Assembly (NCBI RefSeq): GCF_003590145.2 | Contig: NZ_CP060436.1 | Location: 778,001-842,000 of the forward strand | Reading direction: 5' to 3' | DNA length: 64,000 bases | Origin: Pseudooceanicola algae | GTDB lineage: Bacteria; Pseudomonadota; Alphaproteobacteria; Rhodobacterales; Rhodobacteraceae | In this document: positions 56,592-60,159 of the stretch, piece by piece | Layout: each line of letters starts with the position of its first letter | How positions within the stretch are numbered: position 1 is the first letter of the stretch | Made by a program: the position numbers and the translations under genes | Notes under the pieces: model-generated | Database searches by the model: none | What the model saw: only the letters and a program-made list of their open reading frames with translations | Told to the model about the DNA's origin: nothing

Positions 56592-57563
56592 TTCCCGGTC
56601 CCTCCCGCCGAGCTGGCCGGTTTCCTGACGCCGCAAGAGGGCAGGCGGCGCTGCAGAGTTTTCGCGGATTTCAGCATGTTCTTCACCGGAGGTTGTTTAA
56701 CGCGTCAGGTGATTACTTGTCGAGCAAAAGGCTTCCCTCGCGGCAGTTTCAAGGAGATTTCCGGCGATTGCTTGCCAATGGATGATCCCCTCCACTCCCG
56801 TAAGGACATCACCAGGGCTGCCCAGACGGGCGAAAAGATCTTTTTCGACACCTCGTTGGTCCACAGTTGTTTCCCGTCTTGGCCTTTGAGACTGGTGGGA
56901 AAAGGGTAGGCATCGATGAAACATTCCCCGTGCGCATGTTGCCCGGAGTAGTTGTTAGATGTGGCTCCGGGCGCGCCGTCGGGCTCGGGTTGGCTCTTTT
57001 GGATACAGGCGTGGCTGAGAGGACCTCGCCTTTCTCCTGTAGCGTTGGTCTCACGGCCTTTGTAGTGGGGATGACAAGTGCGGCTCATGCGGTCCTGAGG
57101 GCGATGCGGAATAGGACTTCCGCAACTTGCCGGTCGAGGGCCCGCGTAATGTGGCGCTGCCTCAGTCGCTTCATGCAGTGCATCCCCTGACCGACGGGGT
57201 ATTTCCATATGAACCTCTCTCTCGAGACGTTTCGTCTCGACGCCGCATGGTGGTGGTATTTCTTCCAGTTTCGCCAGATGGTGCGACCGAGGTTTTCCCC
57301 CGCGCAGTGCACTTCGTTGCGCGCATTTGTAATCGCTGTCGATGGTCTCCGGGCTTGGCGTTTTTTCTCGGCGGATTGACCGGAAGGCGCATTTTGATTG
57401 GTGCCTCGCGTGTAGGAAACCATGCGCTGCCGGACCGTGCCTTGTGTTGCGAAACCCGTGCGTATCGCAGGTGCTGACATCGGTGATGCAGCCCATCGGC
57501 TCAACCACCGGGAACTGGCGGAGAAGATTAGCAGATGGCTCTTGCACCAGACACGTCGCCTGG
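56592..57563. other. 972-base degenerate region upstream of luxR-type gene and left of the IS island
   Basis: No credible gene. Long overlapping frames on both strands (for example 56705-57547 minus) have non-biological composition. A perfect palindrome TCGAGACG-TTT-CGTCTCGA lies at 57222-57240. Shortly before the IS5 left end, plus-strand codons from ATG 57422 read 'PVRIAGADIGDAAHRLNHRELAEKI', which is protein-like and may be the start of a gene cut by the insertion. The luxR-type promoter must lie near 56600-56700. Confidence 0.55.
57422..57563 (+). pseudogene. Possible 5' remnant of a gene interrupted by the IS5-family element
   Basis: About 47 codons from ATG 57422 with an amphipathic protein-like sequence ending where the IS5 terminal repeat begins. 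No partner fragment was found on the right side, where the IS256 element and cheY operon follow. Family not recognised. Confidence 0.25.
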
Positions 57564-57811
57564 GGCGTTGTTGCATATCTCTGACGCCAGAGGATTCACT
57601 TCGCGAATCCATTCGGTTGCATGGGCTGCATGAGCAAGCCACCTCCCGCGCGCTATCGTACGACGAACTGGTCCAGCTACAACGCGTCACTGTGCAAGCG
57701 AGGGTCTCTGCTGATCTGGGTGGACAAGGATATGACCTGGCACGCGCCGCGTGGCGGGCGGCCGGGACGCCCGCCGGTCTTTTCCGATGCCGCTATCCGG
57801 TTCTGCCTGTC

Positions 57812-57852
57812 CACTGCCCGGCAGGGCGTTGCGCAGCAATGTCCCGAGAGGG
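57812..57852 (-). repeat. 41-base palindromic insert 1
   Basis: Interrupts codon TCG of 'CLSIKIL' in the IS5 transposase; removal restores the frame. On the minus strand it has the left arm CCCTCTCGGG, inner stem CATTGC-TGC-GCAACG (G-U pair on the plus strand), right arm CCCTGCCGGG and tail CAGTG. Orientation opposite to the other three. Confidence 0.85.
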
Positions 57853-58030
57853 GATCAAAATCCTTTTCAAGCTGCCGTTGCGCCAGGCCGCCGGGATGGT
57901 AGCCAGCCTGCTCCGGTTAGCGGAGCTGGACTGGCCCGTGCCGGGCTTCTCCACCTTGTGCCGCAGGCAGAAAACCCTGGCCGTGCAGATCCCCTATCGC
58001 CGTGCTGACGGGCCGTTGAACCTGCTCGTG

Positions 58031-58071
58031 CCCTCTCGGGATCATGCTGCGCATGACCCTGCCGGGTGACA
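58031..58071 (+). repeat. 41-base palindromic insert 2
   Basis: Lies between 'NLLV' and 'DSTGIK' of the transposase. Left arm CCCTCTCGGG, inner stem TCATGC-TGC-GCATGA, right arm CCCTGCCGGG, tail TGACA. The inner stem differs from insert 1 at both sides, keeping pairing. Confidence 0.85.
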
Positions 58072-58293
58072 GACAGCACCGGCATCAAGTTCCTCGGCGA
58101 CGGCGAATGGCAGGCCCGCAAGCATGGCCCGCAGGGCCAACGGCAGTGGCGCAAGGTCCATCTGGCCATGGATCCGGCCACTTCGGACATCCGCGCCGTG
58201 GAATTTACCCTCAGCCGCGACGGCGACGGCCCCGTGCTGCCAGACCTGCTGAGCCAGATCCCGGCAGGCGAGCAGATTGGCACCGTCACCGCC

Positions 58294-58334
58294 CCCTCTC
58301 GGCAGATTGCTTTGCAATCGCTTGCCGGGCAATG
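58294..58334 (+). repeat. 41-base palindromic insert 3
   Basis: Lies after 'GTVTA' and before 'GAYDTRR'. Left arm CCCTCTCGGC, inner stem GATTGC-TTT-GCAATC, right arm GCTTGCCGGG, tail CAATG. Both stem strands again change together. Confidence 0.85.
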
Positions 58335-58545
58335 GGTGGCGCCTATGACACGCGCCGCTGCCACAAGGCCATCATCGGGCGTGATGCTGTCCCGATCATT
58401 CCGATCCGCAGAAACGGACGTCTGTGGAAGGAGGACTGCCCGGCGGCATGCGTCCGGAAGAAACCCTGCGCGCCACCCGATACTATGGCCGGGCCTTCTG
58501 GAAACGCTGGACGGGCTATCACGCCCGAAGTCGGGTCGAAGCGAA

Positions 58546-58586
58546 ACCTCCCGTGACATTGCTGCGCAATGCACTGCCGGTCACTG
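58546..58586 (+). repeat. 41-base palindromic insert 4
   Basis: Lies between 'SRVEA' and 'KMRCLKAF'. Left arm ACCTCCCGTG, inner stem CATTGC-TGC-GCAATG, right part CACTGCCGGT, tail CACTG. The outer GTG/CAC pair replaces GGG/CCC of inserts 1 and 2. Confidence 0.85.
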
Positions 58587-58789
58587 GATGCGCTGCCTGA
58601 AAGCCTTCGGCGAGCGCATCGCCGCGAGAGACCCCGACCGCCAGATCGCCGAAATCGAGGTGAGCTCCGCATCGCCCTCATGAACTGGTTCTCGGCCCTC
58701 GGCACTGCCGAGATCGAACGCGTGCCATGACGTCAGCGGGGTAAGGGGAATTCACGCCTCAAGCCGGAGATCTGCAAAAATGCCGACTG

Positions 58790-60159
58790 GAAGTGTCATG
58801 AGCTCTGTGTATCTGGTCTGGCTCATACGGGTTTCAGATACGGTCACGCATTGAAGCGGTCCTCGAACATTATGGCGAAATGGTTGCGTGCGGCAAACCA
58901 TTTCCGGACATTTCGGTCTCCTTCCTCGAAGTTGCGGATTGCCAGGTAGATCAGCTTTGTGGCGGCGTCCTCGGTGGGGAACGATCCGCGCGTCTTGATG
59001 GACTTGCGGATCACCCGGTTCAGACTCTCGTTATGAATGAGGGACCAGCAGGGGGCAGGTCACATTCGTGGTGTAGATGATCTTGCGGATGGCCGGATCG
59101 AAGGCGAAGAACGGGATCACCTCCTGCCAGGCCCTGCGCCAAGCAGGGGCGATTGATGCATATTTGCCGGGCCATTTTTCTTCGAAGGCATCGAGTTCGG
59201 CGGCTGGCTGATCAACGGTCGGGGCGCTGTAAATACGCCTCAGGTCAGCGGCCACCTCTTTGAAATCCTTCCAGGCGCAGAAGTTCAGCGAGTGGCGCAC
59301 GAGGTGGACAATGCAGGTTTGCACGGCCGTGCCCGGGAAGGCTGCGGTAATGGCGTCAAGGACGCCCTTCAGACCGTCCACGACCGCGATCAGGATGTCC
59401 TGCACCCCGCGGTTCTTCAGTTCCGTCATCACCGAGAGCCAGAATTTGGCACCCTCGTTGTCGGCGATCCAAAGACCAAGAACTTCGCGCATGCCTTCCC
59501 TGTTGACGTCAAGAGCGACGTAGACAGCCTTGTTCTTGACCATGCGGCTGTCAGCATCGCGGATCTTGACCCGCAGAGCGTCGAAAATGACGATGGGATA
59601 CATCCAGTCCAGCGCGCGGCTCTGCCAGTCCCGGACTTCGTCCAGAACGGCATCTATGACGCGGCTGATCAGCTCGGGCGGCACTTGCAGGCCATAGACA
59701 TCCTCGAGATGGGTGCGGATGTCACGAACCGTCAGACCGGCGGCGTAGAGGCCAATGATCTTGTCATCCATCCCATCGATCCGGGTCTGGCCCTTCTTCA
59801 CCAGCTCAGGCTCGAAGCTGCCGTCGCGGTCGCGCGGCACGGCAATCGGCACCTCGACGTCCTGCCCCTTCAGCCGTTTGGAGGATGTGCCGTTGCGCCG
59901 GTTGGACTGATCGGCCGGAGCATCTTTGCCATCTTCATAGCCCAGGTGCGCGGTCAGCTCGGCACCCAGCATCCGCTCCATCAATTTGAACTTCAGCTCT
60001 TTCATCAAGCCGTCATCGCCAAGCAGATAGATCAGATAGATCATCAGGCCGCTCGCCGCCCTTCAGCAGTACGTCCAGCAGTTCCTTGGAAATCGTCATC
60101 GTCCTTGCTCTTCTCAGGAAGCATGGACCGGTTCCAGGTTACACGGAAGTCAGGACACT
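58790..60159. mobile_element. IS256-family insertion sequence, inactive
   Basis: Ends share the pattern AGTGTC-TGA..TC.GTGTA.CTGG: on the left near 58792-58815 and, as reverse complement, on the right near 60134-60159. Outside, CGACTG (58784-58789) is repeated at 60162-60167, with positions two bases further matching partly, as for a worn 8-base target duplication. It abuts the IS5 right end. Length ~1.37 kb. Confidence 0.75.
58844..60099 (-). pseudogene. IS256-family (mutator-like) transposase, disrupted
   Basis: From ATG 60099 the frame 'TISKELLDVLLKGGERPDD' is broken after 17 codons by a 13-base tandem duplication (AGATAGATC twice at 60025-60042 on the plus strand). The main frame continues 'GDDGLMKELKFKLMERMLGAELTAHLGYEDGKD' through 'AFDPAIRKIIYTTN', where a net 28-base insert (59030-59063) causes a second frameshift. 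The C-terminus 'ESLNRVIRKSIKTRGSFPTEDAATKLIYLAIRNFE' then runs to TGA at 58844. DDE residues are in 'VIFDALRVKIRD' and 'IAVVDGLKG'. Confidence 0.9.

What the first reader, a model, noticed from the sequence alone, without database searches (positions are those of the whole stretch)
57812..58586. Four 41-bp hairpin elements inserted in one transposase gene
Sequence shows four inserts in the IS5-family transposase, each exactly 41 bases. Removing each one restores the reading frame and a continuous protein, apart from one separate base loss. The copies are not identical but share a 36-base core (left arm like CCCTCTCGGG, an inner six-base stem with a 3-base loop, right arm like CCCTGCCGGG) plus a five-base tail CANTG (TGACA in copy 2). 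The inner stem is CATTGC/GCAA(C/T)G, TCATGC/GCATGA, GATTGC/GCAATC or CATTGC/GCAATG, and the outer pair is GGG/CCC or GTG/CAC. Such two-sided changes indicate selection on the hairpin or a family of related mobile units. No target duplication is visible. I know of no described element of this length that enters genes this often. Possible explanations are a minimal non-autonomous transposon, a retron-like product, or a footprint family.
Basis: partly seen in the sequence, partly recalled or inferred. Interest (0 to 1): 0.9.

Follow-up and report, generated by a model that had tools for sequence, protein, structure and literature searches.

The report
Tiny hairpin inserts in transposase genes
Marine and related bacteria of the Rhodobacter group carry hundreds of about 41-letter hairpin-forming DNA inserts that land cleanly inside the genes that move jumping genes, and neither what moves them nor how the interrupted genes cope is known.

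Summary
Four 41-bp inserts interrupt an IS5-family transposase in a probable Pseudooceanicola genome; intact relatives lack all four, and no target duplication is visible. They belong to a family I found undescribed: 271 catalogue entries (a few false) with fixed ends (CCCTCTC / TGCCGGGCARYG) and a covarying stem, mostly 41 bp. In the genomes searched by covariance model, strong hits came from one family only (inferred Rhodobacteraceae). Most loci examined lie in transposase genes of several IS families. In Sulfitobacter one IS30, at 98-99% identity, carries 0, 2 and 3 inserts in three strains, so insertion is recent, precise and stepwise. No larger parent element was seen in the fetched DNA. 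Y1 (RAYT) and Y2 (IS91) transposases are absent from the window genome and two hairpin-rich genomes, but the richest (G028) has both. Best reading: a tiny non-autonomous mobile hairpin moved by an unidentified enzyme and spread with insertion sequences. Open and most novel: some interrupted transposases may stay functional (six IS3 copies with four inserts each and no hairpin-free helper; third-codon-position excess in sister copies). Against this: flanking codons do not match, both orientations occur, many host copies are decayed, and the six IS3 copies vary neutrally.

The parts
57590..58763 (+). IS5-family (ISPpa4-like) insertion sequence whose transposase gene is interrupted by four hairpin inserts; ends approximate
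   Evidence: Aligned to intact copies of about 990-1000 bp; DDE_Tnp_1 and DDE_Tnp_1_5 Pfam hits on its pieces; one further 1-bp loss and one 5-bp gain
57812..57852 (-). hairpin insert 1, antisense to the transposase
   Evidence: R1 model 64.2 bits (it is one of the copies the model was built from); absent from intact relatives; same site and type in THAF40 L001 and in L041 of the same genome
58031..58071 (+). hairpin insert 2, sense, directly before the GACAGC codons of the DSTG motif
   Evidence: 56.9 bits (model member); site used again in L044, L048, L057, L066, L136, L184, L208, L225 and L235
58294..58334 (+). hairpin insert 3, sense, at the TA|DGAYD motif
   Evidence: 61.9 bits (model member); same site and GGCAGA-type stem in L001, L136, L184 and L230
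58546..58586 (+). hairpin insert 4, sense, near the VEAKMR motif
   Evidence: 58.8 bits (model member); outermost pair changed on both sides (C-G to A-U) relative to the other copies

Best explanation
The four inserts are members of a family of very small (mostly 41 bp, range about 36-46), non-autonomous mobile elements, found here mainly in one bacterial family (inferred Rhodobacteraceae). SHOWN: fixed ends CCCTCTC...TGCCGGGCARYG around a stem whose pairs covary; precise insertion without target duplication, preferentially between a pyrimidine and (G)AY, in either orientation; residence mostly in transposase genes of several IS families; repeated use of the same sites; stepwise recent gain in strains of one genus. 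INFERRED: the unit moves as a folded single strand, recognised by its structure and constant ends, by a trans-acting enzyme that in at least the window genome, G034 and G015 is not a Y1 (RAYT) or Y2 (IS91) transposase of the host genome as held; it spreads between genomes inside the insertion sequences it sits in, which helps to explain where surviving copies are found. In the window copy it has probably accumulated in, and helped to inactivate, the transposase gene.
For: Covariation in 7 copies. Own genome 9 hits, 7 of them at E<=5.3e-8 and 4 of them the window's own; 25 of 36 genomes of the family but 3 of 24 outside it, those at E 0.1-0.5 (threshold E<=1); 108 of 295 family genomes at E<=0.001. 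271 catalogue entries from 161 loci, 163 of 41 bp, flank preference Y|GAYG. Empty sites in relatives at 78-84% identity outside the inserts and at 98-99%: IS30 with 0 inserts (SK025), 2 (BL28) and 3 (S1704). 300 of 312 right ends have the left arm 20-44 bp away and no longer version was seen in the fetched DNA. Transposase and integrase-core families lead the Pfam tally of 136 flanking fragments (25 of 44 families shown); 122 of 146 loci fall into one similarity cluster. Y1 family in 1 of 36 and Y2 in 3 of 36 family genomes, neither in the window genome nor in the hairpin-rich G034 and G015.
Against: No mobilising enzyme was identified, so 'mobile element' rests on distribution and empty sites. 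G028, the genome with most hits (50), does have a Y1 match and two Y2 matches, so these enzymes are excluded only for other genomes, and only as resident movers. Same-site copies keep one stem type while the host IS diverges, which random insertion does not predict and which needs site-specific re-insertion or strong constraint. Some spread is by the IS copying itself, not by the hairpin moving.
Confidence: 0.74

Rival explanations
1. Intron- or byp-like: the hairpins are removed from the transcript or skipped in translation, so the interrupted transposase is still made and the host IS stays mobile.
For: Genome G034 has six full-length 1385-bp IS3 copies (98.5-99.9% identical), all with the same four inserts (38, 40, 38, 38 bp) and no other indel against four 1231-bp relatives; 3 of 6 have 3-bp target duplications (my reading); no hairpin-free copy, and the other long IS3 transposase matches there are 31-37% identical, with one 71% fragment holding stops. 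In three sister pairs sharing two inserts with private variants or shared base changes (L167-L206, L176-L177, BL28-S1704), 71 of 111 substitutions are at third codon positions (p 3e-8 against a null share of 0.38); on the S1704 branch (three inserts) 8 of 9. Of 19 near-full-length IS427-group copies with inserts or other insertions, 4 (L164, L166, L167, L169) have hairpins but no other frameshift or stop.
Against: Inserts occur in both orientations and all three codon phases; at the sense phase-0 sites inspected the codon before the insert does not match its last triplet. The other 15 of those 19 copies carry further damage. Polarised changes in L167/L206 and L176/L177 are 42 synonymous and 43 non-synonymous. 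Among the six G034 copies only 4 of 15 coding differences are at third positions and one copy has lost its start codon (my count). D. shibae has three identical copies with two inserts plus a stop, so dead copies can be moved in trans. If inserts re-enter the same sites, third-position excess may predate them. The three pairs were picked after seeing that they share inserts; a fourth (THAF40-window, 100 of 184) was left out as not clearly sister.
Confidence: 0.28
2. A divergent branch of the known REP repeats (GTAG with RAYT, or CGTC) that happens to sit in transposase genes.
For: Similar length, conserved ends with variable covarying stems, weakly similar copies in apparently intergenic places (L061, L062, L064, L067); CGTC repeats are common in alphaproteobacteria and have no known transposase (PMC3733652, passages and section 6 read). 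G028 has a Y1 gene.
Against: No GTAG or CGTC tag at the end; 3-nt loop and bulged 9-bp stem against 8-9 bp with 4-5-nt loops; no CCA tail; REPs are mostly intergenic and that paper reports only a few fortuitous associations of CGTC repeats with transposase genes; Y1 family in 1 of 36 family genomes.
Confidence: 0.13
3. A host anti-transposon process writes inactivating hairpins into conserved transposase motifs.
For: Insertion into several IS families, often at conserved motifs (DSTG, DGAYD, DATY, RNR|IE), recurrent same-site same-type insertion scattered among hairpin-free relatives, and mostly frame-shifting lengths (239 of 271 not multiples of three; this is largely the dominance of 41).
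Against: No candidate gene or guide found; target preference Y|GAYG alone gives few sites per gene, so recurrence at motifs with Asp codons may be chance; an intact related copy persists on the same D. shibae plasmid (L262).
Confidence: 0.07
4. Chance or ancestral sequence: the segments are remnants of the original transposase or unrelated indels.
For: The host gene is decayed.
Against: The intact relatives examined lack them, and the family recurs hundreds of times.
Confidence: 0.01

Closest known systems
REP elements and REPINs with RAYT (Y1) transposases
   Same: Short imperfect palindromes, non-autonomous, conserved end with variable stem, both orientations
   Different: No GTAG tag; no Y1 match in the window genome or in 35 of 36 family genomes (G028 is the exception); live mostly in transposase genes rather than between genes
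CGTC-tagged palindromic repeats (incl. RPE-4/RPE-6, dRS3), PMC3733652
   Same: Common in alphaproteobacteria, small, no known mobilising enzyme, occasionally inside genes
   Different: Tag, stem length, loop length and tail differ; not associated with transposase genes; that paper's passages describe intragenic palindromes that lie in frame, whereas most inserts here shift the frame
Bacterial MITEs
   Same: Small non-autonomous elements with inverted repeats that insert into genes
   Different: About 41 bp rather than 70-300 bp; no 15-30-bp terminal repeats (sizes from PMC3733652 passage) and no target duplication
Byps of Magnusiomyces capitatus mitochondria and the 50-nt gap of phage T4 gene 60 (review PMC5009743, passages read)
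   Same: Blocks of about this size interrupting reading frames, several per gene in the mitochondrial case
   Different: Bypass not shown here; [quoted passage not shown] both orientations; found in bacterial transposase genes
Homing introns and inteins (recalled)
   Same: Recurrent insertion at the same conserved motifs in related genes, scattered among empty homologues, no target duplication
   Different: No ribozyme or protein, no Rfam family at its gathering score in the window stretch, far too small; removal not shown

Membership tests
GTAG REP / RAYT system | GTAG-type tetranucleotide at the foot of the hairpin | tested here: not met
   Ends are CCCTCTC and TGCCGGGCARYG across the catalogue (the finder itself requires near matches to these ends)
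GTAG REP / RAYT system | Genome encodes a Y1 (RAYT) transposase | tested here: not met
   PF01797 in 1 of 36 family genomes (G028), none in the window genome, G034 or G015
CGTC REP | CGTC (or TGTC/CCTC) unpaired tag, 8-9-bp stem starting AT, 4-5-nt loop, CCA-like tail | tested here: not met
   Stem of three pairs, bulge and six pairs, usual loop 3 nt, tail CARYG; definition from PMC3733652 section 6. A CCTC string does occur in the left arm but is followed by TC, not AT
MITE | Terminal inverted repeats and target-site duplication | tested here: not met
   Exact empty sites show no duplication; only short CCC/GGG pairing at the foot
IS91-type rolling-circle transposition | Y2 transposase in the genome | tested here: not met
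   PF04986 in 3 of 36 family genomes (G011, G023, G028); absent from the window genome, G034 and G015
Translational bypass element (byp) | Take-off codon matched or near-matched by landing codon at the end of the insert | tested here: not met
   By reading: GTG/ACA, GCC/ATG, GCT/GTG at the three sense, phase-0 sites inspected; the review notes that several byps also lack perfect matches
Translational bypass element (byp) | Full-length protein made from the interrupted gene | not testable with these tools
   No expression data available
Catalytic intron | Group I or II intron core | tested here: not met
   No Rfam family reached its gathering score over 57500-58900; three weak hits only. Other loci were not scanned

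The most novel reading that the evidence does not exclude
These are the smallest intron-like parasites known in bacteria: 36-46-bp hairpins that home to conserved motifs of transposase genes and are precisely removed from the RNA (or skipped by the ribosome), so that insertion sequences carrying up to four of them remain able to transpose and carry them along.
Probability: 0.27. Interest if true: 0.96.

Novelty: new variant of a known kind. Interest (0 to 1): 0.78.

Why it matters
A 41-bp unit that inserts cleanly, repeatedly and recently into transposase genes of several IS families implies an unrecognised insertion activity in a well-sequenced bacterial order, with natural strain series (Sulfitobacter IS30 with 0, 2 and 3 inserts) in which it can be followed. 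If the interrupted transposases still work, bacteria would have a new way of reading through interrupted genes, testable by RNA-seq in culturable species such as Phaeobacter, Sulfitobacter and Dinoroseobacter. Even if the inserts simply inactivate, they bear on how IS families are silenced and may explain some 'frameshifted transposase' annotations in this order.

Tried and rejected
Tried and set aside. (1) First own-genome pattern had the wrong spacing and gave noise; its loci L008-L037 were dropped from later counts. (2) RAYT and IS91 as movers: absent from the window genome, G034 and G015, but G028 has both, so they are rejected as resident movers only where absent. (3) A larger parent element: none in the 1.5 Mb fetched, which was chosen around hairpins. 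The dozen right ends without a left arm include real fragments lacking the 5' part, but too few and partly explained by local deletion, so a reverse-transcription-like 5' truncation is not claimed. (4) 'Multi-copy means functional': rejected as a rule after D. shibae (three identical copies with an added stop) and the G120 genome, inferred P. porticola from contig length (deletion derivatives). (5) An apparent neutral signal in L136/L184 and L176/L177 came from truncated copies aligned past their ends (shown for L136/L184); the IS427 counts were redone with masking. (6) THAF40 and the window share inserts 1 and 3, but P. pantotrophus without inserts is no more distant, so that pair (100 of 184 differences at third positions) was left out of the pooled test. 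(7) Rfam on the window stretch: nothing. (8) Literature: searches found no description of this family in listings and abstract starts; only openly licensed full texts are searched. (9) The catalogue still holds a few false hairpins (for example six 47-bp entries, some a conserved transposase stretch in L165, L166 and L001); L002, L007, L071 and L102 were dropped before the context census, and 10 of 146 loci (L247-L252, L254-L257) were not in the Pfam batch of 136. (10) I first counted L239 as clean; its 43-bp insert at position 322 is not of this family, so the count is 4, not 5. (11) Extending the IS30 series: 4 of 20 genomes had a relative, two of them full-length without inserts by length; it added no further insert-bearing copy.

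Full report
OBSERVATION. The window holds an IS5-family element (about 57590-58763) related to ISPpa4. Aligned with seven relatives from named plasmids, its transposase gene has four extra blocks of 41 bp that the P. pantotrophus, Celeribacter, Palleronia and Alloyangia copies lack. There is also one 1-bp loss and one 5-bp gain. Insert 1 is antisense to the gene and inserts 2-4 are sense. The insertion points show no target duplication. The host is probably a Pseudooceanicola: two genomes called 'same genus' have contigs of the same length as P. spongiae HQ09 and P. endophyticus records.

STRUCTURE. Seven copies (four in the window, two in Roseivivax THAF40, one in Leisingera M527) share a foot CCC/GGG, an unpaired TCTC/TGCC, a GGG/CCC step, a one-base bulge, a six-pair stem and a three-base loop, then a five-base tail. 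96.4% of cells pair, six of twelve pairs change on both sides, and none of 500 shuffles or six slid versions comes near. Single-sequence DNA folding of the window copies is only mildly better than shuffles.

DISTRIBUTION. A covariance model from those seven finds nine copies in the window's genome, four of them the window's own. Among 60 genomes, 25 of 36 of the same family have hits and 3 of 24 outside it do, the latter at E 0.1-0.5 (threshold E<=1). In a 295-genome family sample, 108 have a hit at E<=0.001. Of the 80 rows I saw, 76 titles are, to my knowledge, Rhodobacterales names; the other four are labelled Enemella evansiae, Acetobacteraceae MAG and Alphaproteobacteria MAG (two), which I did not verify. 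Three viral-contig stretches match. A 45-base query hits 101 plasmid records; the ten commonest organism names cover 92, all to my knowledge Rhodobacterales, and the rest were only partly listed.

CATALOGUE. From the fetched loci I collected 271 entries from 161 loci: 163 of 41 bp, the others 34-47 bp, with some false entries among the longest. Each head position CCCTCTC is held in 91-98%, and the right end reads TGCCGGGCARYG; the finder demands near matches to these ends, so this partly reflects the search. The base before the insert is C or T in 237 of 271. The bases after it favour G (192), A (156), T or C (226) and G (146). In 1.5 Mb of fetched DNA, 300 of 312 right ends have the left arm 20-44 bases away; no longer element with these ends was seen. 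That DNA was chosen around hairpins, so a rare parent elsewhere is not excluded.

CONTEXT. Of 136 flanking fragments, the leading Pfam families are transposase or integrase-core families (DDE_Tnp_1 in 22 members, rve 19, DDE_Tnp_1_5 13, and so on). Among the 25 of 44 families shown, four families of ordinary genes appear once each. Members can match several families, so I give no single total. 122 of 146 loci form one similarity cluster. Several of the rest look like IS66, IS110, IS256, IS630, IS91 or IS1182 transposases by eye (my reading). A minority (for example L051, L061, L062, L064, L067) appear intergenic. Survivorship explains part of this: inserts in useful genes are lost, and those in insertion sequences are copied. 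It does not easily explain why intergenic copies are few.

RECENT, PRECISE INSERTION. One IS30 element in Sulfitobacter is annotated intact in strain SK025. At 98-99% identity it has two inserts (40 and 42 bp) in S. pontiacus BL28 and three (40, 41 and 41 bp) in S1704, with no other indel or stop in the compared part (the first 16 and 2 bases of the gene were outside the aligned stretches). The two shared inserts go with 14 base differences from SK025 that BL28 and S1704 also share (my count; polarity only partly known). This is the cleanest evidence that the unit inserts stepwise and exactly.

SAME SITE, SAME TYPE. In a 34-copy alignment of IS427-group elements, sites recur (276, 350, 374, 608 and 638 of the reference gene), and a site tends to hold one stem type. 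Site 638 has GTGACATTGC/GCAATGCAC-type hairpins in seven aligned copies, with closely similar ones in L149, L052, L203 and L207 outside the alignment; L049 and L054 carry another type two to three bases away. Hairpins there differ at 0-4 of 41 bases, although third codon positions of the host genes differ by 36-46%, apart from the two sister pairs at 13-18%. In genome G179 three copies at 84-86% identity carry a 41/41 identical hairpin, with flanking differences again within eight bases. On the tree such copies are interleaved with hairpin-free intact ones (several nodes have low support). Either a given hairpin re-enters its site, as a homing element would, or it is under strong constraint. 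I cannot separate these. Recombination between inserts at two sites also occurs and deletes what lies between (L163, L056, L092, L200; my reading).

DO INTERRUPTED TRANSPOSASES STILL WORK? For: genome G034 (99% complete, two contigs) has six full-length IS3 copies of 1385 bp, 98.5-99.9% identical, each with the same four inserts (38, 40, 38 and 38 bp, two per orientation). Three of them, aligned with four 1231-bp relatives, show not one further indel, and all six have equal length. Three of six are flanked by exact 3-bp duplications (my reading). There is no hairpin-free full-length copy, only fragments; other long IS3 transposase matches in that genome are 31-37% identical. In three sister pairs that share two inserts, 71 of 111 substitutions fall on third codon positions (L167-L206 44/70, L176-L177 18/27 after masking, BL28-S1704 9/14), p 3e-8 against a null share of 0.38. 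On the S1704 branch it is 8 of 9. Against: within the six G034 copies only 4 of 15 coding differences are at third positions and one copy has lost its start codon (my count). Polarised with outgroups, the two IS427 pairs give 42 synonymous and 43 non-synonymous changes, weaker than expected of intact genes. Only 4 of 19 near-full-length IS427-group copies with insertions have hairpins and no other damage. D. shibae's three identical copies carry an extra stop, so trans-mobilisation happens. If hairpins re-enter sites, the third-position excess may be older than they are. The inserts lie in all codon phases and both orientations, and codon pairs at the three edges inspected do not match, which speaks against classical bypass and rather for removal at RNA or DNA level if anything.

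MOVER. Y1 (RAYT-type) transposases occur in 1 of 36 family genomes and Y2 (IS91-type) in 3 of 36, neither in the window genome, G034 (32 hits) or G015 (26 hits). But G028, with the most hits (50), has both. The mover is unknown. A structure-recognising single-strand recombinase is my inference from the lack of target duplication, the constant ends and the covarying stem.

PLACE AMONG KNOWN THINGS. By defining features it is neither a GTAG/RAYT REP nor a CGTC REP (definitions from PMC3733652, section 6 and passages), nor a MITE, nor a catalytic intron. It works most like a small mobile palindrome; its distribution resembles homing introns; its effect on reading frames resembles byps and the T4 gene 60 gap (PMC5009743, passages). 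Six literature searches showed no description (listings and abstract starts).

CHANGES AT CHECKING. Corrected against the calls: the clean IS427 copies are 4, not 5; the richest genome does carry Y1 and Y2 genes; 239, not 240, lengths shift the frame; 92, not 91, plasmid records. I lowered the best explanation, the intron-like rival and the novel case by 0.01-0.02 each and raised the REP rival by 0.01 for these.

Noticed in passing
L163, L056, L092, L200, L188, L186: Copies in which the left flank of one insertion site and the right flank of another bracket a single hairpin: deletions by recombination between two inserts of one IS.
   Followed up: partly
L004 (Roseinatronobacter), alignment position 802: An IS5 copy with a 38-bp insert that by eye forms a different hairpin and is not of this family; possibly a second small-insert family.
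   Followed up: no
L239, reference position 322: A 43-bp palindrome-containing insert of unrelated sequence in an IS427-group copy that also has two hairpins of this family.
   Followed up: no
L200 and L248 (reference position 203), L248 (282), L048 (702), L235 (491): Recurrent inserts of exactly 36 bp in IS427- and IS5-type copies, not resolved by the hairpin finder; may be short members of the family.
   Followed up: no
L061, L062, L064, L065, L067, L068: Weaker, apparently intergenic hairpins with similar arms in GC-rich spacers, one (L067) in a head-to-head pair; possible REP-like relatives or ancestors.
   Followed up: no
L390, L282, L316, L323: Rare fragments that keep the 3' end of the unit but lack the 5' arm; among the few orphan left ends none is a convincing 3' truncation.
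   Followed up: partly
L087 / L088 (G015): A 2898-bp element duplicated at 99.9% identity in two places and carrying at least three hairpins; ends GCGTGTATGTTGGATGTCACTC / GAGTGACATCCAACA.
   Followed up: partly
L109 (G034): IS30 copy with a 20-bp remnant resembling half of a hairpin at a second site, perhaps an imprecise loss.
   Followed up: no
window 59031-60044: A 337-aa open frame next to the interrupted IS5 that looks like an IS256/Mutator-type transposase (recalled, not searched); this part of the window seems to be a nest of insertion sequences.
   Followed up: no
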